IMG/VR virus record: IMGVR_UViG_3300037010_000365
Location: 1 to 64,000 of that record
Strand: one strand, 5' to 3'
DNA from: a virus
DNA length: 64,000 nucleotides
Within the stretch, counting starts at the first letter, position 1. Every line of letters begins with the position of its first letter. Both the position numbers and the translations under genes were made by a program. The notes below the pieces were generated by a model. The model ran no database searches and was not told the origin of the DNA. It was given only the letters and a program-made list of their open reading frames with translations. This document shows positions 700-36,400 of this stretch, in pieces.

Positions 700-2262
700 G
701 TGAATTATTTGAATCAAATATCATCATTGGATCGGTTCATACCTGATTCGATAGTAGCGCAGTATCCAGAATTTACTGAGCTATTCAGACAGTATATCTT
801 GTTTATAAAGAGTACTTCTGCCTCTGACGTTATTTCACGTTTAGATTTAGATAATATCTCTGATCAATTCATTTATAACATAAAAAATGAAATTGCTTTT
901 GATATTCCAACAGCAAATCCAATTAAAACGTTATCTAAAGATGAAGTAGCTAATTTGTTGTTGACAGCTACTAACTTATATAAATCAAAAGGAACCATTC
1001 ATTCTATCAAGTACTTATTTCGTGTACTATACGGTTCTGAGTCTTTAGTTGAGTTAGGTAGATTAGGTGAATACATTGAATACAAACCAACAGCTCTTAG
1101 TATTGTTGAAATTGATTCAAGCGGTATCCATGTACCATCTCCAGATTATAACTTGTTTTCATATCAACAGTTCTATAAAGTTGGTACTACACATAGTATA
1201 ACAGCGCCGTATGTGATAGCTAGTTTTGAAGCTGTTTATAGCGGATCATGCGTAACATACTTTAATGACGGTGCAGATAAATTATGGGTTGAGATAACAA
1301 CGGATATAGCAATCGGTGATATTTTAATGTTCCCTGATATTGGTAGACGAGTTGTAGTATTGGGCTTTACCGGGCTTAGCCTTGACGGTTGGAATGCTAA
1401 AAATGAAAGATGGCGTGATCACGATGGGTTTTATATTCTTAATGAAATAAACCCACGAATTAATAATACATTTTATAAAGAAGTTAATGGTTTTAATATT
1501 ATAGAACCCGTCGATGCTGATAATATCAGATACACATTGGTTAATGGTGTTTTAAAGTTTATAAATCTATCAGGCGTTTCTTATGAGTTTATTAATATCC
1601 GTGTTTGTAGCACTGTAGGTGGTATTCAATATCGTACCGATATATGGTATACTATTGTTGATGGAGTATTAGTTTCCCTTACTGAAAATAACAATGACTT
1701 GCTTCCGCTATATAGCTCAACAGGCGTTATAATAGACGCATCAAGATTCTACGATATTAACGGTATTCAGTTAGTAACAGCAGCACGCCTTGAATCAACA
1801 AAGCAATTAATATCAATGTTTAGCATTTATTTTATGAATAATGTTAGGCCTGATATCTACATGGATACTATTAGAAAAACAGTTGTGCCTGCAGGATATA
1901 AAACTATTCATATTGATAGTAAACCCGAATTTGTTAGATACACAGGCGCGTTTTATGTTGTACCGCAAGGAACAAATAAAGTTAAATATGAATCAATAGT
2001 CAGATCAAATACTATTGTTACTCTAAATCAACTATTATCAAAAATTGATGATTTAGATAGTATTCATTATTATAAAGGCATGCTACCTATTATTGATAAC
2101 TTCAATATACTAGTGGACTACAATAATAATATTAATGCTGATAAATCATTCTATCTATCACTCGCTAATACTGTTGATTATAGCAGATCGTTATTATATG
2201 ACGGTGCTAAAACATACAATGGCTTAGTTAATTATAACTCGGTATCGCACATATTAGTATAA
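700..2262 (+). CDS. Baseplate/tail structural protein in gp7 position
   Basis: A 520-residue protein starting 10 bases after the gp6-like gene. Residues ~85-115 carry LYKSKGTIHSIKYLFRVLYG, a motif repeatedly seen in T4-like baseplate proteins that act beside gp6. The rest is beta-rich with many aromatic and Asn/Asp residues, consistent with a virion surface protein. It is only about half the length of T4 gp7 (1032 residues), so it may be a shorter analogue rather than a true orthologue. No signal peptide or membrane segment is seen. Its place in the wedge operon supports a structural role. Confidence 0.45.
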   Translation: MNYLNQISSLDRFIPDSIVAQYPEFTELFRQYILFIKSTSASDVISRLDLDNISDQFIYNIKNEIAFDIPTANPIKTLSKDEVANLLLTATNLYKSKGTIHSIKYLFRVLYGSESLVELGRLGEYIEYKPTALSIVEIDSSGIHVPSPDYNLFSYQQFYKVGTTHSITAPYVIASFEAVYSGSCVTYFNDGADKLWVEITTDIAIGDILMFPDIGRRVVVLGFTGLSLDGWNAKNERWRDHDGFYILNEINPRINNTFYKEVNGFNIIEPVDADNIRYTLVNGVLKFINLSGVSYEFINIRVCSTVGGIQYRTDIWYTIVDGVLVSLTENNNDLLPLYSSTGVIIDASRFYDINGIQLVTAARLESTKQLISMFSIYFMNNVRPDIYMDTIRKTVVPAGYKTIHIDSKPEFVRYTGAFYVVPQGTNKVKYESIVRSNTIVTLNQLLSKIDDLDSIHYYKGMLPIIDNFNILVDYNNNINADKSFYLSLANTVDYSRSLLYDGAKTYNGLVNYNSVSHILV

Positions 2263-2287
2263 TAATAAAATATAAAGGGTTTAAATA

Positions 2288-2758
2288 ATGGCTTATTTAC
2301 CAGAAACCGCTACCTACGAAGCAGGTATATATCAACTTGAAATAACTGATCCAGTTATAGGTGGAGCAGGCGGGAAATCGAACATCCAAGGTAACCAATT
2401 AGCTAATAGGACATCATATCTAAAGCAACAAGTTGAGTTGAAAGTTGATAAAGATTCTAATACTGGTGCAGCGTTATTACCTGCAGGTACGTCAACGCAA
2501 CGTCCTACGGCAAGTCCAGGTAAACTACGTTTTAATACTGATCTTGCTAAATTTGAAGGTTACAATGGTAGTGCTTGGGGTTCATTAGGCGGCGCAACTG
2601 GTGGTGCTGATGACACAGTGTTCTATACTAATAGTCAAACCGTAACAGCAAACTATACTATCCCTGTAGGTCAAAACGCTATGACAGTAGGACCTATTAC
2701 TGTTAATGAAAATGTAGAAATTGGTATATCTGTAGGTAGTGTATGGATCATATTTTAA
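2288..2758 (+). CDS. Small tail fibre/adhesin protein
   Basis: A 156-residue protein with an AAAGGG ribosome-binding site. Residues ~35-50 (ANRTSYLKQQVE) match the helix found near the base of many phage fibres. Residues ~70-100 hold RPTASPGKLRFNTDL followed by a GYNGSAWGSLGG loop, a common fibre-repeat signature. The C-terminus (QNAMTVGPITV...GSVWIIF) resembles the short beta-prism tips ending many phage adhesins. It is much shorter than a full fibre, so it may be a tip, a connector or a shortened fibre. Receptor unknown. Confidence 0.5.
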   Translation: MAYLPETATYEAGIYQLEITDPVIGGAGGKSNIQGNQLANRTSYLKQQVELKVDKDSNTGAALLPAGTSTQRPTASPGKLRFNTDLAKFEGYNGSAWGSLGGATGGADDTVFYTNSQTVTANYTIPVGQNAMTVGPITVNENVEIGISVGSVWIIF

Positions 2759-3170
2759 TTCAGGTTATAGAATTAGTAGATTAGAGTAAACATTAAACGG
2801 TCAACTAGTGTTTAGCAAGAATTTTGATGTGATGAATAATACTACATACTTTACTTAGAGTATTACTAAATTATACTATCAAGATATAGAATTAATAGTT
2901 GTTTCTAACTATTAAAATAGAAGAAATTATAGTAATCAATTGTTATTAACTACTTACCAAGTCTCAATTAGTCAGTATAGTAGTTACAATAATATTTGTA
3001 GTAGACAAGGAAGTATACTATTATCATAGTAAAGAGTCACGTACGTTATATGGCTTAGATCTGACAGTCATTATTGTTTATGCATTATTAACAATAAAGT
3101 TATATTAGTTGATATAAATAGTACAAGCAGTTATGATAATTAAAATTAAACCTTAAATAAGGATTGTGTA
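2759..3170 (+). other. Non-coding stretch between tail genes
   Basis: About 410 AT-rich bases with dense stop codons in all frames. The only element recognised is the late promoter at 3113-3120. No gene remnant was identified, although comparison with related phages could reveal one. Confidence 0.5.
3113..3120 (+). promoter_or_regulatory. T4-type late promoter
   Basis: Exact TATAAATA, the element read by gp55-type sigma factors, 51 bases before the tailspike gene. Confidence 0.75.
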
Positions 3171-5186
3171 ATGGCAAAGTTTAGAATTACAAATACTAAT
3201 GATAATTCGGTAGAGTTAGCGTTAGATAGTACAGTATTAGCCAATGTTAAGCAAGGCGAGTTCATTGCTAAGACAGTAGCTACAGTAGCAAATTTAATGA
3301 GTACACCAACAGTAGGCGCGTTGAATGTATTGAACTACTATTCAGGCAGTGAAGGTGGTGGGGTATTTTACTGGGATAGTAATAAGTTAAAAAGTGAACA
3401 TAACGGTGGTACTGTTATTGATCCTACTAAAGTATTTCCTAGTGACTGGAATGATCAAGTACAATTGACTAACTGGTTTACTTGTAATACTGCTGGTAGT
3501 GGTTGTTGGGTAAGGCAACATCAGAACAAATTAGACACAGCTTGGTTTGGTTTAACCAGCAGTACACCTGCTATTGCTGTAAAGATAGGGTTTGAAAAAA
3601 TGTTATCTGTTTGTGCACAGGATAATGGTATTTGGTATGACCCTAAATACAGTATATTTGTATCACAAAATCTGAATACAACAGGGGTTACTATTATATT
3701 ACCACCTATTGGTGCTAATAGAAATGGGTTGACAATTACAGGAAAAGGGTTTGGTGGGTTTAATAAATCCGATAATACTTTTATGTTCGATGCTCAACAG
3801 GATAATTCTGGAAACCTTACATTTGATAGTCTGACATTTAAGGGTGTTAACAATGCACCAGTAGCTAATAGACCTAAAATTTTTAATGGTAATAGAATTA
3901 TTAATACTTTAACGCAAAACTGTATATTTATGTTTGTAGGTAAAATATGGGAAGCATTACCACTTCCTCAAGAACTAACTACAAGTGGTTATTTGCAATC
4001 TATCACATCAATTAATGATTGGGTACTACAAAATTCTGACATAGCCATTCATGCTGGAGCGCTATATAATTGCGCTTGGACAAGATTGTCTATGGAAGAG
4101 GCTAGTAGTGCTGATTGTGCTTTTATGAAAATTGAAGGTGGTCCTTACTACAATAGTACAAATATGACAGTTATTAGAGATAGCTTGATAGAAGGACTTA
4201 ACTACCAAGGTTTACCTTTTAGTAATAGTGTAATCTATATTGGCTCAAATGGTGGAATGTTAAGTATTGAAAACTTATACACTGAAAAAAATACCTCTAA
4301 TGACATTACAATTGCTCATCCTACTCAAATTATAAAAATTTCGGGATTAAACTTTGGAAATGGAGATTTTGTTGCTGCTCCAAGAATACGTATACTTGGT
4401 AACCTCGGTAATATAAGTATTACAGGTTGCAGAGGTAATACAGCGCCTGTAGTTGATTTAACAGAGGTAACACAACCTGGTGACGCAGTCTACGAATGTA
4501 ATATTAAAAATAATTATTCGCTGACAAAATACATCAATATAGTAAGCATAAGCAATGATACTGTTAACGGTATTTTAACATTCAATCTTGACCCAACATC
4601 TGTAGATTTTATAGGTAACTTTAGGGTTGGCGAATATATTTCTGTAGATAGTTTGAACAACTTTGCATCAATTAACAATAGAGCTGTAATTGTTGATAGT
4701 GTAGGTGATACATTTTTTACAGCAAAGGTTATTACAACTGATGTTTACTCATCTGGTGGACGTGTTAGTAAGTTATTTCCGTGGGTAATATCCTATCAAA
4801 CACCGCCAGTAACTGCTGGGATGATGACAGGGTATTTCCCGTTTGAAGATAAAAATGCGGCTTCTGTTATAGTTTATAAAGATGTTAAATTTTACATGCA
4901 GCAATATAGGACTGGGTTTGTCTACACAAGCAACGCTTACTACAACTTACCTCCTGGGGCTGTTCAAACAGTTACATTTGTTATGCCGTTTGAAACATAC
5001 CAGAGTGACCAGTACGCTGCATATATAACTAACCCAAATAACAGAGAGATTATAAGCATTGATAATGTAGGGATTACTAACAGGGTTGCATCGGTTGTAC
5101 TTCGGAATACTTCTGCTTCTTTGACGGCAGGTGGTTCAATTACTACTTCTTTGACTAAAGAATCGGCTCTTACTATAACAGGTTAA
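3171..5186 (+). CDS. Tailspike / tail fibre protein with predicted beta-helix
   Basis: A 671-residue protein with an AAGGA ribosome-binding site and its own late promoter. Residues ~50-110 (ALNVLNYYSGSEGGGVFYW, then GGTVIDPTKVFPSDWN) form the short connector that in many phage spikes precedes a pectate-lyase-like right-handed beta-helix. Residues ~130-470 have the irregular Asn/Gly/Ile-rich repeats of such a helix, and the last ~200 residues look like beta-rich trimerisation or binding domains. It is likely to bind or degrade host surface polysaccharide. No catalytic residues can be assigned, and the substrate is unknown. Confidence 0.65.
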   Translation: MAKFRITNTNDNSVELALDSTVLANVKQGEFIAKTVATVANLMSTPTVGALNVLNYYSGSEGGGVFYWDSNKLKSEHNGGTVIDPTKVFPSDWNDQVQLTNWFTCNTAGSGCWVRQHQNKLDTAWFGLTSSTPAIAVKIGFEKMLSVCAQDNGIWYDPKYSIFVSQNLNTTGVTIILPPIGANRNGLTITGKGFGGFNKSDNTFMFDAQQDNSGNLTFDSLTFKGVNNAPVANRPKIFNGNRIINTLTQNCIFMFVGKIWEALPLPQELTTSGYLQSITSINDWVLQNSDIAIHAGALYNCAWTRLSMEEASSADCAFMKIEGGPYYNSTNMTVIRDSLIEGLNYQGLPFSNSVIYIGSNGGMLSIENLYTEKNTSNDITIAHPTQIIKISGLNFGNGDFVAAPRIRILGNLGNISITGCRGNTAPVVDLTEVTQPGDAVYECNIKNNYSLTKYINIVSISNDTVNGILTFNLDPTSVDFIGNFRVGEYISVDSLNNFASINNRAVIVDSVGDTFFTAKVITTDVYSSGGRVSKLFPWVISYQTPPVTAGMMTGYFPFEDKNAASVIVYKDVKFYMQQYRTGFVYTSNAYYNLPPGAVQTVTFVMPFETYQSDQYAAYITNPNNREIISIDNVGITNRVASVVLRNTSASLTAGGSITTSLTKESALTITG

Positions 5187-19097: not shown

Positions 19098-19799
19098 ATG
19101 TTAGGTTTTGATTACTTCTATAATGAATCAATTAAGAATATGATTGTTACATTTGGATCGTTGTTTAATGAAGTATATATTTCAAGAGCAAGAAAAGATA
19201 CTAATTCAGTGTTGATTAAAGTTCCGTTGCACTACGGTGATCAATCTAAAGTATATATGTATAGTAAATCTGGTAACAACCCATTTAATTCAATTTGGCC
19301 TAGAATGGCGTTTGATTATGGTATCGGTGCAGTTGATGATCAACGTAAAACTAGCAGAACGATTATACATAACTTTGGCAAATCGGTTAATAACACTGGT
19401 GAATGGTCGTCACGAAACTTCATTCCGTATGATTTTACATTCAATTTGTATATTGGTGCAAGTGATATCCAGGACGGATTGCAAATTGTTGAGCAAGTAC
19501 TACCATTCTTTCAACCAGAATTAACTGTTAAGATCAGACCACTAAAAGATTTTCCAGATTTTATCGCAGATGTTCCTATTGAATTGCTAAGCGTTACTAC
19601 TGATTATGAAGCTGACGGTGAAATTGAAGCCAGGGAATATTATAACTGGACTCTTAGTTTTAATCTAAAGGGGTTCCTATTTAGTCCAGTCATTAAGGAT
19701 GCTTATAAAGTAATTGATGCTTATGACATTAACCTTAAAGACTTCAACTTACTACAACAGGATGCTAAGGATATGGTTGCTAAGAGTGGTATAATTTAA
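19098..19799 (+). CDS. 15: Tail sheath stabiliser / tail terminator, gp15-like
   Basis: A 233-residue protein with an AAGG site. It opens GFDYFYNESIKNMIVTFGSLF (T4 gp15: GYFYNSSFRRYATLMGDLF) and contains FTFNLYIGASDIQDGLQIVEQVLPFFQP (T4: YELSIFTRYEDDMFQIVEQ-ILPYFQP) at ~125-155, followed by WTLSFNLKGFLFSPV near 195-209. gp15 caps the finished tail tube and sheath and provides the head-binding surface. Gene order 14-15-16 is as in T4 apart from the inserted spanins. Confidence 0.88.
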   Translation: MLGFDYFYNESIKNMIVTFGSLFNEVYISRARKDTNSVLIKVPLHYGDQSKVYMYSKSGNNPFNSIWPRMAFDYGIGAVDDQRKTSRTIIHNFGKSVNNTGEWSSRNFIPYDFTFNLYIGASDIQDGLQIVEQVLPFFQPELTVKIRPLKDFPDFIADVPIELLSVTTDYEADGEIEAREYYNWTLSFNLKGFLFSPVIKDAYKVIDAYDINLKDFNLLQQDAKDMVAKSGII

Positions 19800-20182
19800 T
19801 GAATTTATTAATGTTTAGAATTCCGTTATGGATTGTTGGAGTTGTCTTTATAGCAATGTCGACACAGATAGTATCTCTTACATACGATCTAAACAGAGCA
19901 GCAGATAAATTAGATAAAGTCAATGAGATGTACACAACAGCTAAGAATAATAATGAGGTGTTAGTTGCTTCAATATCTGATCAAAATACTGCTATTGATA
20001 AGCTTAAGCAGTTGAGTGCGCTGCAACAAAAAGAATTAGATGCGAGAGTGCTAGAAGCTAATAGATTAATGGATCTTAATAACAAGGCCGTTAACACAAT
20101 TAATAATGTCAAGGTCGATACGACAGGTGAAGGGAGTATTAAATGGCTATCAGAACAGTCGCGTTCATTATCTCAATGGTAA
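19799..20182 (+). CDS. Inner-membrane spanin subunit (Rz-like)
   Basis: A 127-residue protein with an N-terminal transmembrane segment (~4-24, MFRIPLWIVGVVFIAMSTQIV) and a long periplasmic coiled coil (~30-105). Its last 40 bases overlap a lipoprotein gene in another frame, the classic Rz/Rz1 arrangement. i-spanins pair with the outer-membrane lipoprotein to fuse inner and outer membranes in the last step of lysis. Start overlaps the gp15 stop (TAATG). Confidence 0.78.
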   Translation: MNLLMFRIPLWIVGVVFIAMSTQIVSLTYDLNRAADKLDKVNEMYTTAKNNNEVLVASISDQNTAIDKLKQLSALQQKELDARVLEANRLMDLNNKAVNTINNVKVDTTGEGSIKWLSEQSRSLSQW

Positions 20183-20430
20183 TAGCATTGCTGCTTTTGT
20201 CTGGATGCACCACTCAGCGTGAACCAGTGATTCGGGGTGTTAGAGTTGATGTACCTATCGCTGTTGAATCTCCGAGTGTCCCTGACAGACCTCTACCAAC
20301 ATTGCCAATAAGTGATATAACAGATGGCTCACCGAATGATGTTGTTGTTAAAAAGTATGCAACTAGCATTGTTATCTTAAAGAATGAGATAAATTGGTAT
20401 AGGTCTGTGATCTACAAGGATAAGCATTAA
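20143..20430 (+). CDS. Outer-membrane spanin lipoprotein (Rz1-like)
   Basis: A 95-residue protein with a GGGAG site. It has a signal peptide with lipobox LLSGC (Cys at ~22), then a Pro-rich stretch (VESPSVPDRPLPTLP) typical of o-spanins. It overlaps the i-spanin gene by 40 bases in a different frame and is longer than lambda Rz1, closer to T4 PseT.2-type. The pair implies a Gram-negative host. Its stop overlaps the start of the small terminase gene. Confidence 0.8.
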   Translation: MAIRTVAFIISMVIALLLLSGCTTQREPVIRGVRVDVPIAVESPSVPDRPLPTLPISDITDGSPNDVVVKKYATSIVILKNEINWYRSVIYKDKH

Positions 20431-20804
20431 TGTTTGGATCCTTACAACAACGGTTTAACGCAGAACCTATGGAATACACAATATTACCAAGCAAAACTAG
20501 CAATAAAGTTGCAGTATCAACTGAAGTAGTTGATACTTATATTGAAGATGAGCTTAAAGATACAGTAACACAGATTAATGATGCAGCGGATAAAATACTA
20601 AACTTGGCAAAGACAAGTGAGCAACCTAAAGCCTATGAGGTTTATGGTACGCTACTAAAGACTAAAATTGACGCGTTAAAAGAACTAAATAATATCAGAA
20701 AAGGTACTGAAAAGCAGGTTGCTGGCGTTATTAATAATACGCAGATAAATGCGTCAGGTACCAATATCAACGAAATATTAAAGGCGATGCGAACACAACA
20801 ATGA
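20430..20804 (+). CDS. 16: Small terminase subunit, gp16-like
   Basis: A 124-residue, mostly helical protein with predicted coiled coil (ELKDTVTQINDAADKIL...TKIDALKELNNIRKGTEKQ), matching the oligomerising core of T4 gp16 (164 residues). It would recognise DNA and stimulate the large subunit. Called mainly by position: it overlaps the large terminase gene by ATGA and follows the gp15/spanin block. The N-terminal DNA-binding part is short. Confidence 0.7.
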   Translation: MFGSLQQRFNAEPMEYTILPSKTSNKVAVSTEVVDTYIEDELKDTVTQINDAADKILNLAKTSEQPKAYEVYGTLLKTKIDALKELNNIRKGTEKQVAGVINNTQINASGTNINEILKAMRTQQ

Positions 20805-21292
20805 GTAAAAAAGACATACCCTGGGGTAAATTTGATTTAGCATCAAAGCCAGATGATTCTGTGCTGAACATAGAACCTGATCAAGAAGGGTATTACCATG
20901 ACGCTGCAGGTGAACGGTTTTCATTCAATGGAAATAGAACGCTTAGACCTGCTCATGTTAGAATGCACTTAAATGAATATCATATACAGGAAATCGCTAA
21001 GTGCGCAGAAGATATGAGATATTTCATTTTTAATTATTGTAAAGTACTAACAAGTCGCGGATGGCGTACACCAGATCTCAGAGATTATCAAGAAACATAC
21101 CTAAAAACAGCGCTAACAGATAATAGAATTGTGCTACTCCAAGGCCGGCAATCAGGTAAATGCCAAAATTATAACACGATTATAAATATTCGTAATAAAC
21201 ACACCGGAGAAGTTGAAGCACTCTCTGTTGGTGAATTTCATGAACGAATAAGGAACAAAAATAGTGATCAAACTAAAGAAGTCGATTGTTAA
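20801..21292 (+). CDS. 17: Large terminase, N-terminal fragment fused to split-intein N half
   Basis: A 163-residue product. Residues 1-120 are the N-terminal part of the T4 gp17-type packaging ATPase, ending exactly inside the Walker A loop (LLQGRQSGK). From residue 121 an intein N half begins (CQNYNTIINIRNKHTGEV...), whose first Cys is the splicing nucleophile, followed by a block-A-like pattern. The frame stops after only 43 intein residues. The remaining intein and terminase lie in a separate downstream gene (21414-23522) in another frame. Trans-splicing would rejoin GRQSGK to TVATALYF, restoring a Walker A motif (GK-T). Confidence 0.88.
   Translation: MSKKDIPWGKFDLASKPDDSVLNIEPDQEGYYHDAAGERFSFNGNRTLRPAHVRMHLNEYHIQEIAKCAEDMRYFIFNYCKVLTSRGWRTPDLRDYQETYLKTALTDNRIVLLQGRQSGKCQNYNTIINIRNKHTGEVEALSVGEFHERIRNKNSDQTKEVDC
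21161..21289 (+). other. Split intein N half (IntN), 43 residues
   Basis: Codes for C1 QNYNTIINI, SVGEFHERI and the end KEVDC. Break lies between block A and block B, as in the AceL-TerL class of atypically split inteins, rather than at the usual endonuclease position. Only the first ~30 residues look intein-like; the tail may be acquired sequence. Confidence 0.85.
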
Positions 21293-21374
21293 AACATTTA
21301 AAATAATATCAGCACCGATTAAACCGTATGATATTATTCCACAAGAAGTTGATTATATATCGCTATGGGTTTAA
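21264..21374 (+). other. Intein-like C-terminal relic between the two terminase genes
   Basis: Starting at GTG 21264, a frame of 36 codons overlaps the end of the IntN gene and reads KTFKIISAPIKPYDIIPQEV then DYISLWV before a stop. IKPYDII..EVDYISLWV resembles the start of block F of contiguous inteins (compare IEPYNVESEYFDLINV of the second intein here). The HN-ending splice motif is absent. Probably debris from the event that split the intein; a functional role is not excluded. Confidence 0.4.
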
Positions 21375-21413
21375 TACTACAGATTGCGTTTGACATTAGT
21401 TCGAGTATAGTAA

Positions 21414-21773
21414 ATGAATTTATCTGATAACACTTACCGTAAATTCACTGAAGTATATGATGTTAGTGATTATGAAGTCCTATCTCATAACGGTTGGGTA
21501 GATATAACACAATCAAATCAGACTGTAGAGTATGAGGTGTACTTATTAGAATTAGAAAATGGTTTATCTCTAGAATGTGCTGATACCCATATTTTGATGA
21601 CTAATGATCTAACCGAAGTATATGCAAAAGACAGTTTGGGTTCGTTGATATACACTAAATCAGGTCCGTCTAAGGTAATATCGGTTAGCAACCTAGGCTA
21701 CTCTGAGCGTATGTATGACCTATCTGTAGGTGGTGATCATACGTATTTCACAAATGATATATTGTCACATAAT
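21414..21773 (+). other. Split intein C half (IntC), 120 residues
   Basis: Begins with its own ATG and a short leader, then YEVLSHNGWVDI, block B ECADTHILM with Thr-x-His order, and block F/G DLSVGGDHTYF...ILSHN. Asn120 is the cyclising residue and Thr121 the +1 nucleophile. Too short for a homing endonuclease. Confidence 0.87.
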
Positions 21774-23522
21774 ACAGTTGCGACTGCTCTTTATTTTGTT
21801 TGGGCTGCTACATTTCACAACGACGTTAAAATTGGTATCAGCTCAAACGTAGAGAAAGGTGCTATTGAAGTACTTGATAAAGTTAAAAAGATCTACGGAT
21901 CTTTACCTATTTGGTTGCAACAAGGCGTTGAAAAGTGGAACGTAAAGACCGTCATTTTAGAAAATAAATCCAGTATTATCACATCAGCTACTAACGGAGA
22001 TGCGTTTCGTGGATTCTCGTTTGTAGGCGGTGAAGGATATTCTACATTATATGTAGATGAGTGTGTTGAATATAATACTAAGATTAAAATTCTATCAAGT
22101 ACTACAAAAATATTCGAAGAAGTAAGTATCGGTGATTTATACCGAAGATTTAACACTGACAGTGTTGTGTATGTTTCTGATCTATCCGTGATGACGCAGA
22201 CCGGCATGAGATCTTTTGATGGGATTAAGCGAACTGTTAGATCTGACGGGATTAAGATTAAAACAGCTTCAGGTGAGTTGATCTGTACACCAGAACATTT
22301 ACTGAAAATCGAGAATGGCTTCATTGAAGCTAAAGATTCATTCAATAAATTCATTGATAGCAGTTCGGGCCTTGAATTGGTGACTAGCATAGAGCCGTAT
22401 AACGTTGAATCTGAATACTTCGACCTTATTAATGTTAAAGGCGGTCATACATACTTAACAAATAATATTGTTTCACACAACTGTGCATTTGTTCATGACT
22501 GGCAAGCATTTTCAGACTCGGTATTACCTACCGTATCATCTGACCCTAATGCAAATATTATTTTGACATCCACAGCAAATGGTATGAATCATTTTTATGA
22601 AATGGTTAAACTAGCAAGAGCTAAAATATCTGAATACACACTAATAGAAACGCCATGGAATTGTCTACCAGAGAGAAACGAAGAATGGAAGCAGAAGATA
22701 ATTGCAACTAACGGCATTCAATACTTTAATCAGAACTATGGTAATCAGTTTTTGGGTTCATCATATACGCTTATTAACAGCGAAGGTCTTGAAAAACTTA
22801 TTTCACGCACGCCAATCCAATCAAATGATAATCTTACAATTTATCAAAAACCAATAAAAGGTGCTAAGTATATCATATTAGGTGATCTTGCGTCTGGAGC
22901 TGGTGAAGATTTTTCAGTTTTACAAGTGATTAAACTGAGTAAGCGTAAATTTGAACAAGTTGCGATTTTTAGATCTAAAGATACTCCAGTTCTTAGTATG
23001 CCTTTGGTTATTCAAGAAATTGGTAAAAAATATAATGATGCGTTTGTGTTTATGGAAATCAACTTCGGTGAAGAAGCTGCTAGCAGACTATATCACGACT
23101 TAGAGTATGAAAATCTTTTAACAATTGCGGTTCATAATGGAAAACAAAAGCTACAAGGCTTCCGCGGTAAGATGCAAACAGGTCTTCGGGTTGATGTTAA
23201 AATTAAGCAGACACAACTTAGCTCATTAAAAACGTTAATTGAATCAAATAAGCTTGTAATTAATGACAATACTACTATCTCTGAATTTTATTCATTCGTT
23301 CAGCATGGCATTTCATTCGCTGCAGAAGCAAATAAGCATGATGATTGTGTTATGGCGTTGGCACTATTAGGATGGCTAGTAACTCAGCCTGTATTTTCTG
23401 AAATTATTGATTATGATTACATTGCTGACTATGAGAGTGAAAAATCTGAAGAATTATCAGATTTAATACCTGCCGCGTTTTTTGGGTATAACGACCCAGA
23501 TGAATGGGAAGTTTTTGAATAG
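21414..23522 (+). CDS. 17: Large terminase, intein C half plus ATPase/nuclease with a second, contiguous intein
   Basis: A 702-residue product. Residues 1-120 are the split-intein C half (LECADTH block B, MYDLSVGGDHTYF and ILSHN at the end); splicing joins at T121. Residues 121-216 continue the ATPase to the Walker B motif LYVDE. Residues 217-356 are a second mini-intein (C217 VEYNTKIKI ... NIVSHN), then CAFVHDW completes the DECAF-type Walker B. The rest holds the RNase-H-fold nuclease: ILGDLASG (Asp), FMEINFG (Glu) and KHDDCVMA (Asp). Joined exteins give about 562 residues (T4 gp17: 610). The ATG has no strong ribosome-binding site. Confidence 0.9.
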   Translation: MNLSDNTYRKFTEVYDVSDYEVLSHNGWVDITQSNQTVEYEVYLLELENGLSLECADTHILMTNDLTEVYAKDSLGSLIYTKSGPSKVISVSNLGYSERMYDLSVGGDHTYFTNDILSHNTVATALYFVWAATFHNDVKIGISSNVEKGAIEVLDKVKKIYGSLPIWLQQGVEKWNVKTVILENKSSIITSATNGDAFRGFSFVGGEGYSTLYVDECVEYNTKIKILSSTTKIFEEVSIGDLYRRFNTDSVVYVSDLSVMTQTGMRSFDGIKRTVRSDGIKIKTASGELICTPEHLLKIENGFIEAKDSFNKFIDSSSGLELVTSIEPYNVESEYFDLINVKGGHTYLTNNIVSHNCAFVHDWQAFSDSVLPTVSSDPNANIILTSTANGMNHFYEMVKLARAKISEYTLIETPWNCLPERNEEWKQKIIATNGIQYFNQNYGNQFLGSSYTLINSEGLEKLISRTPIQSNDNLTIYQKPIKGAKYIILGDLASGAGEDFSVLQVIKLSKRKFEQVAIFRSKDTPVLSMPLVIQEIGKKYNDAFVFMEINFGEEAASRLYHDLEYENLLTIAVHNGKQKLQGFRGKMQTGLRVDVKIKQTQLSSLKTLIESNKLVINDNTTISEFYSFVQHGISFAAEANKHDDCVMALALLGWLVTQPVFSEIIDYDYIADYESEKSEELSDLIPAAFFGYNDPDEWEVFE
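22062..22481 (+). other. Contiguous mini-intein in Walker B of terminase, 140 residues
   Basis: Cys1 (CVEYNTKIKI), block B TASGELICTPEHLLKI (T76-x-x-H79), block F YFDLINVKGGHTYL and terminal SHN, then Cys +1. No endonuclease domain. Inserted between Asp-Glu and Cys of the DECAF motif. Confidence 0.9.
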
Positions 23523-35833: not shown

Positions 35834-36400
35834 ATGATTGAAATTACCGCGAAACCGTATGATGTTAGATTCGCAAAGCGTAAAGCTAGAAATAAAGATG
35901 CAGCCGATTATATCAATAATTCTTTGTTGTACGAAGAAATGGTAAGATGGAAGGAATCTGGAGAAGAGAAAGTATCTGCTGAACTTGGTAGAATGTTTTT
36001 ATTATTAGCAAAAAAAGTAACATCACATCGCCATTTTTCTAGATATCCAATTGAATTAAAAGAAGAAATGGTAAACGAAAGCGTTATAACCTTATTAAAA
36101 GGCGCTAGCAAGTTTAATCTTGAATTTAAAAATCCATTTGCATATTTTACACAATTCTGTTTCAACGCAAATATTGGTGTTATTAAAAAGTACTACGCTG
36201 AGAATGCTGGGACAATTCAATACTTTTTAGCAAACACACAAGAAATTGATGTCACTGATGGTCATACATTAGCAGTTATTGAGCAAGCAAAGATGTATTC
36301 AGATTCTAGAGCAAATTCTAGCAAAAAAACAAAATCAAATAAAGCAGTTAGACCAACATTATTTGATTTTGATGAATTCGTAAAAGAACTTGTTGATTAA
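35834..36400 (+). CDS. 55: Late-transcription sigma factor, gp55-like
   Basis: A 188-residue protein (T4 gp55: 185). ELKEEMVNESVITLLKGASKF and NPFAYFTQFCFNANIGVIKK at ~75-118 match T4 ([40 protein letters not shown]), the sigma region-2 core that reads TATAAATA. The C-terminus RPTLFDFDEFVKELVD is the counterpart of the T4 sliding-clamp-binding tail (SLDFLYE) that couples late transcription to replication. AAGGA ribosome-binding site and early-type promoter are visible. The PTLF motif recurs at the C-termini of two genes at 57-60 kb. Confidence 0.9.
   Translation: MIEITAKPYDVRFAKRKARNKDAADYINNSLLYEEMVRWKESGEEKVSAELGRMFLLLAKKVTSHRHFSRYPIELKEEMVNESVITLLKGASKFNLEFKNPFAYFTQFCFNANIGVIKKYYAENAGTIQYFLANTQEIDVTDGHTLAVIEQAKMYSDSRANSSKKTKSNKAVRPTLFDFDEFVKELVD

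What the first reader, a model, noticed from the sequence alone, without database searches (positions are those of the whole stretch)
20801..23522. Naturally split intein in the terminase Walker A loop plus a second intein in Walker B
The P-loop of the packaging ATPase is cut between GRQSGK and TVATALYF. The N half ends in a 43-residue IntN, the C half starts with a 120-residue IntC in another gene and frame 121 bases downstream. The break lies between intein blocks A and B, as in the rare AceL-TerL type, not at the usual site. A second, 140-residue contiguous intein splits the DECAF Walker B of the same protein. Both catalytic motifs are therefore non-functional until two splicing reactions, one in trans, are complete. 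This would make packaging start only once both precursors accumulate.
Basis: partly seen in the sequence, partly recalled or inferred. Interest (0 to 1): 0.93.

Follow-up and report, generated by a model that had tools for sequence, protein, structure and literature searches.

The report
Phage packaging motor with two inteins
The DNA-packaging motor of this phage is encoded in two separate genes whose protein halves would have to be stitched together by a split self-splicing element, while a second self-splicing element cuts itself out; it is a real new example of a known kind of arrangement that turns out to be common in phages.

Summary
A T4-type terminase (TerL) is cut inside Walker A (GRQSGK|T): a 43-aa IntN ends gene 1, a 120-aa IntC starts gene 2 after a 121-bp gap; a 140-aa contiguous intein sits in Walker B (DE|CAF). 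A 91-92% identical contig (L001) has an empty Walker A site, so the 613-bp insert is a discrete element. No other TerL was found in the 82-kb record. The class is not rare: of 113 related loci, 53 are split with an ORF in the break, 21 split without (one an artefact), 15 contiguous. Two cultured phages carry TerL halves 77 and 26 kb apart, which would need trans-splicing. Splits without an ORF are scattered over the tree, suggesting that the split can outlive its endonuclease. New lead: a T4-type late promoter core (TATAAATA) is written inside IntN of many ORF-bearing relatives; this window keeps it without the ORF. Best reading: functional trans- plus cis-splicing of selfish origin (0.9). The claim that splicing times packaging has no support. 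Splicing is untested. Real; new member of a known kind; interest 0.52.

The parts
20430..20804 (+). terminase small subunit, directly upstream
   Evidence: phrog_445 E 7.5e-11
20801..21160 (+). TerL N-extein, 120 aa, ends in Walker A ...GRQSGK
   Evidence: phrog_5989 E 1.1e-21; coordinates
21161..21289 (+). IntN, 43 aa, Cys1; stop codon 21290-21292
   Evidence: empty site in L001; homologous IntN in relatives
21181..21188 (+). TATAAATA, T4-type late-promoter core written inside the IntN coding sequence
   Evidence: that this is the T4 late-promoter core is recalled
21293..21413 (+). 121-bp break between the two genes; longest stop-to-stop stretch 40 codons; no Rfam match
21414..21773 (+). IntC, 120 aa, own ATG, ends LSHN; +1 residue Thr
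   Evidence: coordinates
21774..22061 (+). TerL middle part, 96 aa, TVATALYF...YVDE
   Evidence: phrog_5989 E 4.5e-28 over residues 116-248 of the second gene
22062..22481 (+). contiguous Walker B intein, 140 aa, Cys1, ...SHN, +1 Cys
   Evidence: intein_Nterm within the whole gene, profile match to CatC 6.8e-22, dN/dS 0.139 against L001
22482..23522 (+). rest of TerL (CAFVHDW... nuclease domain) and stop
   Evidence: gp17 3ezk/3cpe, Terminase_6C
35834..36400 (+). late sigma factor, relevant to the TATAAATA sites
   Evidence: phrog_234 E 1.7e-23

Best explanation
A T4-type terminase large subunit carries two mobile inteins. The first, in Walker A between K and T, is naturally split after its first helix into a 43-residue IntN and a 120-residue IntC encoded by two adjacent genes. 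The two precursors associate, rebuild a Hint domain and splice in trans (Cys1, block B His, HN, Thr+1: class 1 chemistry, inferred). The second, in Walker B between DE and CAF, splices in cis. Only the doubly spliced 562-aa protein would have intact Walker A and Walker B motifs. The first intein most likely passed through a fractured-gene stage with a free-standing homing endonuclease in the break; here that gene is absent and the host gene has stayed in two pieces. Shown: sequence anatomy, homology, empty site, purifying selection on the Walker B intein, no second TerL found in the record, isolated phages with far-separated halves. Inferred: splicing itself, and loss of an endonuclease.
For: Anatomy. 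Intein families and PDB profile matches. A contiguous homologue (L065) models at pLDDT 78.9 and has 61 PDB matches at E <= 0.001; the 50 listed are intein or Hint structures; the break falls in its disordered loop. Empty site in L001. Walker B intein under purifying selection, dN/dS 0.139; exteins 0.03-0.05. No second TerL found. Same intein split around a free-standing ORF: L003 (ORF with a T5orf172 nuclease-type domain above cut-off), L034 and L035 (ORFs without a Pfam match). Contiguous: Kuja, VAP7, PhaxI. Isolated Vibrio phage vB_VmeM-32 has the same two sites occupied, with its TerL halves 76.7 kb apart on opposite strands, in a one-contig long-read assembly (PMC6483233, passages). Campylobacter phage NCTC12673 has split Walker B intein halves about 26 kb apart on opposite strands.
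Against: No splicing was measured. Block B Thr is Ala (CADTH), though the aligned relatives mostly share this. Gene 1 with IntN alone has no intein family match. This exact allele is seen in one contig. The ATG of IntC has only a weak ribosome-binding match (GAG). The Walker B intein model failed (pLDDT 41.6 from two sequences). A relic of an endonuclease in the gap could not be shown. The record is a fragment, so another TerL outside it is possible.
Confidence: 0.9

Rival explanations
1. The split is a decaying, non-functional intein, and the phage packages with another TerL or is a dead lineage.
For: Only one contig shows this exact allele; the record is a fragment (82 kb), so a second TerL could lie outside it; block B Thr is lost.
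Against: No second TerL found in 82 kb; both genes open and conserved to the catalytic ends; isolated phages have split TerL genes.
Confidence: 0.05
2. Sequencing or assembly error broke a contiguous intein.
For: Contiguous homologues exist (15 of 113 loci).
Against: 613-bp insert with stops in all frames of the break; same break region with an own start codon in many relatives.
Confidence: 0.02
3. The halves are joined at RNA or translation level (intron or ribosomal bypass) rather than by protein splicing.
For: A spliced TerL transcript is reported for phage ICP1 (PMC10448857, passages).
Against: No Rfam match in 20700-22700; both sides of the break are intein sequence; halves 77 kb apart on opposite strands in a relative.
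Confidence: 0.01
4. The arrangement is kept as a timing device: packaging starts only once both precursors accumulate.
For: Both Walker motifs are interrupted; TATAAATA inside IntN could set separate expression of the second gene.
Against: No timing evidence; close relative L001 lacks the Walker A intein; the state (ORF in break, bare, contiguous) changes at least 19 times on a tree with 59 labelled rows, as expected of an element that comes and goes.
Confidence: 0.06

Closest known systems
AceL-TerL and GOS-TerL split inteins
   Same: Terminase inteins split after the first helix with a short IntN (25 and 37 aa; here 43) and long IntC (104 and 115; here 120); PMC11766414 and PMC13014065, passages seen
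   Different: They have Cys+1; this has Thr+1 and sits at Walker A K|T. By profile E-value, CatC (the engineered AceL/GOS consensus) is nearer to the Walker B intein family (6.8e-22) than to the Walker A family (3.3e-11). Their exact insertion sites were not read.
Fractured genes (Dassa 2009; paper not held, content recalled)
   Same: Essential phage gene broken by a split intein into two genes; 53 of 113 related loci have an ORF of 90 aa or more in the break
   Different: No such ORF in the break here; atypical split site.
Vibrio phage vB_VmeM-32 TerL (KU160494)
   Same: Split Walker A intein plus contiguous Walker B intein
   Different: Halves 76.7 kb apart; the main text of its paper holds no occurrence of 'intein'
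Contiguous TerL intein of Salmonella phage Maynard (PMC3868846, passages); membership of Maynard in Ackermannviridae is recalled
   Same: Intein in a T4-like TerL; the Ackermannviridae read here (Kuja, VAP7, PhaxI) have theirs at Walker A
   Different: Contiguous; Walker B motif whole in those three

Membership tests
Intein (class 1, Hint fold) | Cys/Ser1 at start and His-Asn at end | tested here: met
   C...SHN for both inteins
Intein (class 1, Hint fold) | +1 Cys, Ser or Thr | tested here: met
   Thr+1 (Walker A), Cys+1 (Walker B)
Intein (class 1, Hint fold) | block B TxxH | tested here: inconclusive
   His kept in both; Thr present in the Walker B intein (TPEH), Ala in the Walker A intein (ADTH)
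Intein (class 1, Hint fold) | Hint fold | tested here: inconclusive
   Met for a contiguous homologue of the Walker A intein (L065): pLDDT 78.9, Foldseek to inteins. The window's own inteins were not modelled with confidence (Walker B: pLDDT 41.6; IntN and IntC not modelled).
Intein (class 1, Hint fold) | protein splicing activity | not testable with these tools
   needs expression
Atypically split TerL intein (AceL/GOS type) | break after the first helix, IntN shorter than IntC | tested here: met
   43 + 120 aa; helix 22-33, then residues 40-48 and 50-55 under pLDDT 50 in the modelled homologue
Atypically split TerL intein (AceL/GOS type) | Cys+1 and the same insertion site | tested here: not met
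   Thr+1 here; Cys+1 in the review table. The site itself was not compared.
Fractured gene with split intein | gene in two ORFs, each with its intein part | tested here: met
Fractured gene with split intein | free-standing endonuclease gene in the break | tested here: not met
   longest stop-to-stop stretch in the break 40 codons; no GIY-YIG match in the record at E 0.01
T4-type terminase large subunit | ATPase and nuclease domains, next to small terminase, portal, protease and capsid genes | tested here: met
   (Terminase_6N itself at 19.7 bits stays below its cut-off of 22)

The most novel reading that the evidence does not exclude
The IntN coding sequence of this terminase intein doubles as a T4-type late promoter. 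It originally served the gene in the break; in this phage, after that gene was lost, it drives the second half of the host's own packaging gene. A selfish element thus leaves behind a gene in two independently expressed pieces, and once each piece can be expressed on its own the pieces are free to drift tens of kilobases apart, as in vB_VmeM-32 (which has TATAAATA 24 nt before its IntC gene).
Probability: 0.4. Interest if true: 0.72.

Novelty: new member of a known kind. Interest (0 to 1): 0.52.

Why it matters
It gives a naturally split, short-IntN intein with Thr+1, possibly useful for protein labelling, with a natural empty-site control. The comparison set (empty, contiguous, split with an ORF, split without, far-separated) makes the question of how split inteins arise and persist testable in one gene family. 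It also shows how annotation can miss the N-terminal half of a terminase (PhiW-14) or leave it as hypothetical (vB_VmeM-32). The promoter written inside IntN, if real, is a concrete reason why such breaks could persist after the endonuclease is lost.

Tried and rejected
Endonuclease relic in the 121-bp gap: one frame (VIKLKKSIVKTFKIISAPIKPYDIIPQEVDYISLWV) looked like the ends of GIY-YIG-like ORFs from relatives. Smith-Waterman against 11 such ORFs, with dinucleotide shuffles: best score reached by 99 of 500 (gap alone) and 249 of 500 (gap plus overlap) shuffles; mean score by 44 and 7 of 500. For a 6-member subfamily: best 192 and 148 of 500, mean 31 and 42 of 500. For 41 ORFs: best 91 and 159 of 200, mean 77 and 77 of 200. 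Not established.

Structure of the window's Walker B intein: pLDDT 41.6 with two rows, not used. A first P-loop regex was too strict. A second gave, for 85 rows, 35 split with ORF, 21 split without, 12 contiguous, 17 N half not found, with 4 more loci lacking an A site; the profile-based count replaced it. Sigma-70 promoter scan: fewer sites than in shuffles (1 against 6.1), uninformative. Relatives of the Walker B intein in viral contigs by single sequence: only the L001 contig. Papers not held: Dassa 2009, Bachmann 2015, Aranko 2014, Stevens 2018. Paper searches with no result.

Rows dropped: before, 19 loci were left out: six pieces of the own record (L015-L020), three further pieces of KU160494 (L013, L014, L033), the two empty-site loci L001 and L002, and eight second copies of contigs already present (L040, L115-L117, L126-L128, L134). 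L021 and L065 are the same phage and both count among the 15 contiguous. L027 (run of N inside the gene) is wrongly among the 21 split without ORF and was dropped before the tree. L074/L075 (1872-nt break, no ORF of 90 aa) are also among the 21. Promoter positions: a first count (11 of 16) used 65 starts that I picked by hand; the mechanical recount is 10 of 16.
Full report
Observation. The window is part of an 81,961-base virus record. Proteins tested between 18.4 and 33 kb are T4-type structural and packaging proteins: head closure, tail-sheath stabiliser, small terminase, TerL, portal, head protease, major head protein, tail sheath. TerL is encoded by two ORFs, 20801-21292 and 21414-23522. 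The first ends in GRQSGK followed by 43 residues of IntN; the second begins with a 120-residue IntC ending LSHN, then TVATALYF. A second, 140-residue intein lies between YVDE and CAFVHDW. The TerL parts add up to 562 aa.

Is it an intein? Pfam Intein_splicing scores 40.1 bits on the second gene (cut-off 35.8); NCBIfam intein_Nterm 27.8 (cut-off 24.5) and intein_Cterm 17.3 (cut-off 15.6). The pieces alone mostly fall below the cut-offs, and gene 1 with IntN matches neither library. Profiles built from relatives find gp41-1, CatC and VidaL inteins in the PDB. A contiguous homologue of the Walker A intein (L065, the IMG/VR copy of Vibrio phage Kuja) models at mean pLDDT 78.9 and matches mini-inteins. 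In the alignment with the same intein (L021) the window's break falls after the helix at 22-33, where residues 40-48 and 50-55 are under pLDDT 50: the S2 position described for AceL and GOS TerL (PMC13014065, passages).

Empty site. L001, 91.2% identical over 3,012 aligned bases upstream and 92.2% over 894 downstream, reads straight through GRQSGK-TVTTALYF; the window has exactly 613 extra bases there. L001 keeps the Walker B intein. Between the two, dN/dS is 0.05, 0.042 and 0.03 for three TerL parts and 0.139 for the Walker B intein, so that intein is under purifying selection, less strict than the extein. For the Walker A insert no relative close enough for this test was found; the nearest IntC is 59% identical.

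Is it functional? Not tested directly. No other TerL was found in the record, which is a fragment. The best biological evidence is in isolated phages. In vB_VmeM-32 the IntC-TerL gene lies at 1102-3216 (+) and the N half with IntN (annotated hypothetical, noted as similar to terminase) at 79947-80624 (-), 76,730 bases apart; its paper says that each phage assembled from long reads as one contig (PMC6483233, passages). It has the same contiguous Walker B intein position. In Campylobacter phage NCTC12673, Walker A is whole and the Walker B intein is split, with halves about 26 kb apart on opposite strands. Seven records with no N half beside the C half were searched for one: four had it (NCTC12673; the 735-kb uncultured phage LR756501, about 12 kb away; G001, about 15 kb away, with a TAG inside the IntN part; G005, nearby, with a TAG inside), three short contigs did not. 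If such TerL proteins work, they must be joined in trans.

How common? One scan of IMG/VR with an IntC alignment gave 517 stretches encoding a relative, of which the best 80 were kept; only those were looked at, and 4 of the 80 were not at the A site by regex. A second scan with the window IntC gave 43 loci. In 113 loci classified with profile searches (window included, some near-identical), 53 are split with an ORF of 90 aa or more in the break, 21 split without, 15 contiguous, 23 had no N half in the fetched stretch, and 1 lacked a clear end. At 90% identity, 109 loci reduce to 73: 32, 17, 11 and 13. One of the 21/17 (L027) is a run of N and does not count. PhiW-14, an isolated phage, is split with a 48-nt gap and its N half is not annotated. 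Campylobacter phages CP21 (contiguous) and F379 (split around an ORF annotated as endonuclease) belong to one genus; their intein sits three residues earlier (RQ|S).

What is in the breaks? Of ten ORFs from breaks given to Pfam (three of them in L035's second and third breaks, one in L034's second break, one in NrdA), three pass a nuclease-family cut-off (T5orf172 in L003, GIY-YIG in L035, HNH in the NrdA break), one passes DUF559, one (F379) hits T5orf172 below cut-off, one has a weak CapR match and four match nothing, among them the A-site ORFs of L034, L035 and L114. So 'endonuclease' is established for some breaks and inferred for others.

Tree. On a tree of 72 rows, the 16 split rows without an ORF need 13 changes of state, 9 forced by well supported branches; shuffled labels need 14.1 on average and as few in 132 of 500, so these rows are hardly clustered. 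All three states need 19 changes (shuffled 23.5; as low in 3 of 200). The window's own place is not well supported. The simplest reading is repeated loss of the ORF with the gene left in pieces; gain into an already bare break is not excluded.

Both Walker motifs at once. Of 112 A-site loci checked, only the window and vB_VmeM-32 show an intein start directly after DE in Walker B; 64 have the motif whole by the regex, 16 have other residues after DE, 30 were cut or not matched. I read 26 loci by eye, these two among them: 23 carry another intein just before or at the start of Walker B, often at RG.S|C, and one (PhiW-14) is whole. L035 has TerL in at least four genes, with split inteins at three sites and free ORFs in each break. 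So multiple interruption is common in this gene family; this exact pair of sites is not.

Promoter inside IntN. TATAAATA, the core of T4 late promoters (recalled), occurs at 21181-21188 within IntN. The window encodes a late sigma factor. Of its 16 plus-strand TATAAATA sites, 10 lie 15-70 nt before the start of an ORF of 80 aa or more, although such positions make up 6.0% of the window; their total number is not above chance (19 on both strands against 13.2, 10 of 100 shuffles as many). Among 47 non-redundant IntN sequences (those matching a P-loop regex), 14 have the motif in their first 60 nt, against 2.8 expected when codons are redrawn from each locus's own usage (0 of 1,000 draws as many); control windows have it in 0 of 207 (N-extein) and 2 of 404 (IntC and C-extein). 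By excess it ranks first of all 256 A/T octamers there. It is found in 12 of 23 with an ORF in the break and in 2 of 21 bare or contiguous ones (Fisher p 0.003; against the 13 bare ones alone, of which only the window has it, p 0.011); 3 of the 47 had no state. In 12 of the 14 the motif lies 27-63 nt before an ORF of more than 300 aa; for L045 no start was found, and in the window the next ORF is IntC at 225 nt. The test was thought of after seeing the motif and the rows are related, so this is a strong lead, not proof. In one close pair, L049 (ORF present) has TATAAATA and L039 (absent) TATAAGTA; another pair, L003 (present) and L043 (absent), shows no such difference, both reading AATAAATA.

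Comparison. The architecture is that of fractured genes with a split intein (Dassa 2009, recalled; not held), minus the endonuclease, and its split site is that of the AceL and GOS TerL inteins. It differs from those in the +1 residue (Thr). TerL inteins are in print for Salmonella phage Maynard (PMC3868846) and Campylobacter phage IBB_35, whose authors describe an intein plus an endonuclease-bearing intron (PMC3322345) (passages seen). The searches listed no paper that by title, abstract start or the passages I saw describes a split Walker A TerL intein; most subscription papers are not held.

Conclusion. The finding is real and nearly exactly as described. Its mechanism, trans-splicing plus cis-splicing of one terminase, is very likely. 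Its proposed role in timing packaging is unsupported, and the type is widespread in phages rather than rare.

Noticed in passing
own record G000 about 72.8-75.4 kb (outside the window; L015): NrdA (ribonucleotide reductase, by eye) is also split by an intein, with a longer IntN and short IntC, and an ORF with an HNH domain between the halves.
   Followed up: partly
L035 1830-8618: Terminase apparently in at least four genes, with split inteins at three sites and free ORFs in each break.
   Followed up: partly
window 21181-21188 and relatives: TATAAATA inside IntN, associated with an ORF in the break.
   Followed up: yes
KU160494 80621-81091 (L033): 161-aa ORF between small terminase and TerL N half looks like a degenerate TerL ATPase domain (RQLGLTT, LLVID), by eye.
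   Followed up: no
window 19799-20182 and 20143-20430: Overlapping pair that looks like Rz/Rz1 spanins (second one with a lipoprotein-like signal), just before the terminase genes, by eye.
   Followed up: no
L004 5743-8391: Split TerL intein with an ORF in the break at a further site, before CEFLGS; the related locus L002 has that site empty.
   Followed up: no
records G001 and G005 (L163, L164, L162): TerL N halves with an in-frame TAG; possibly TAG read as a residue in these phages.
   Followed up: no
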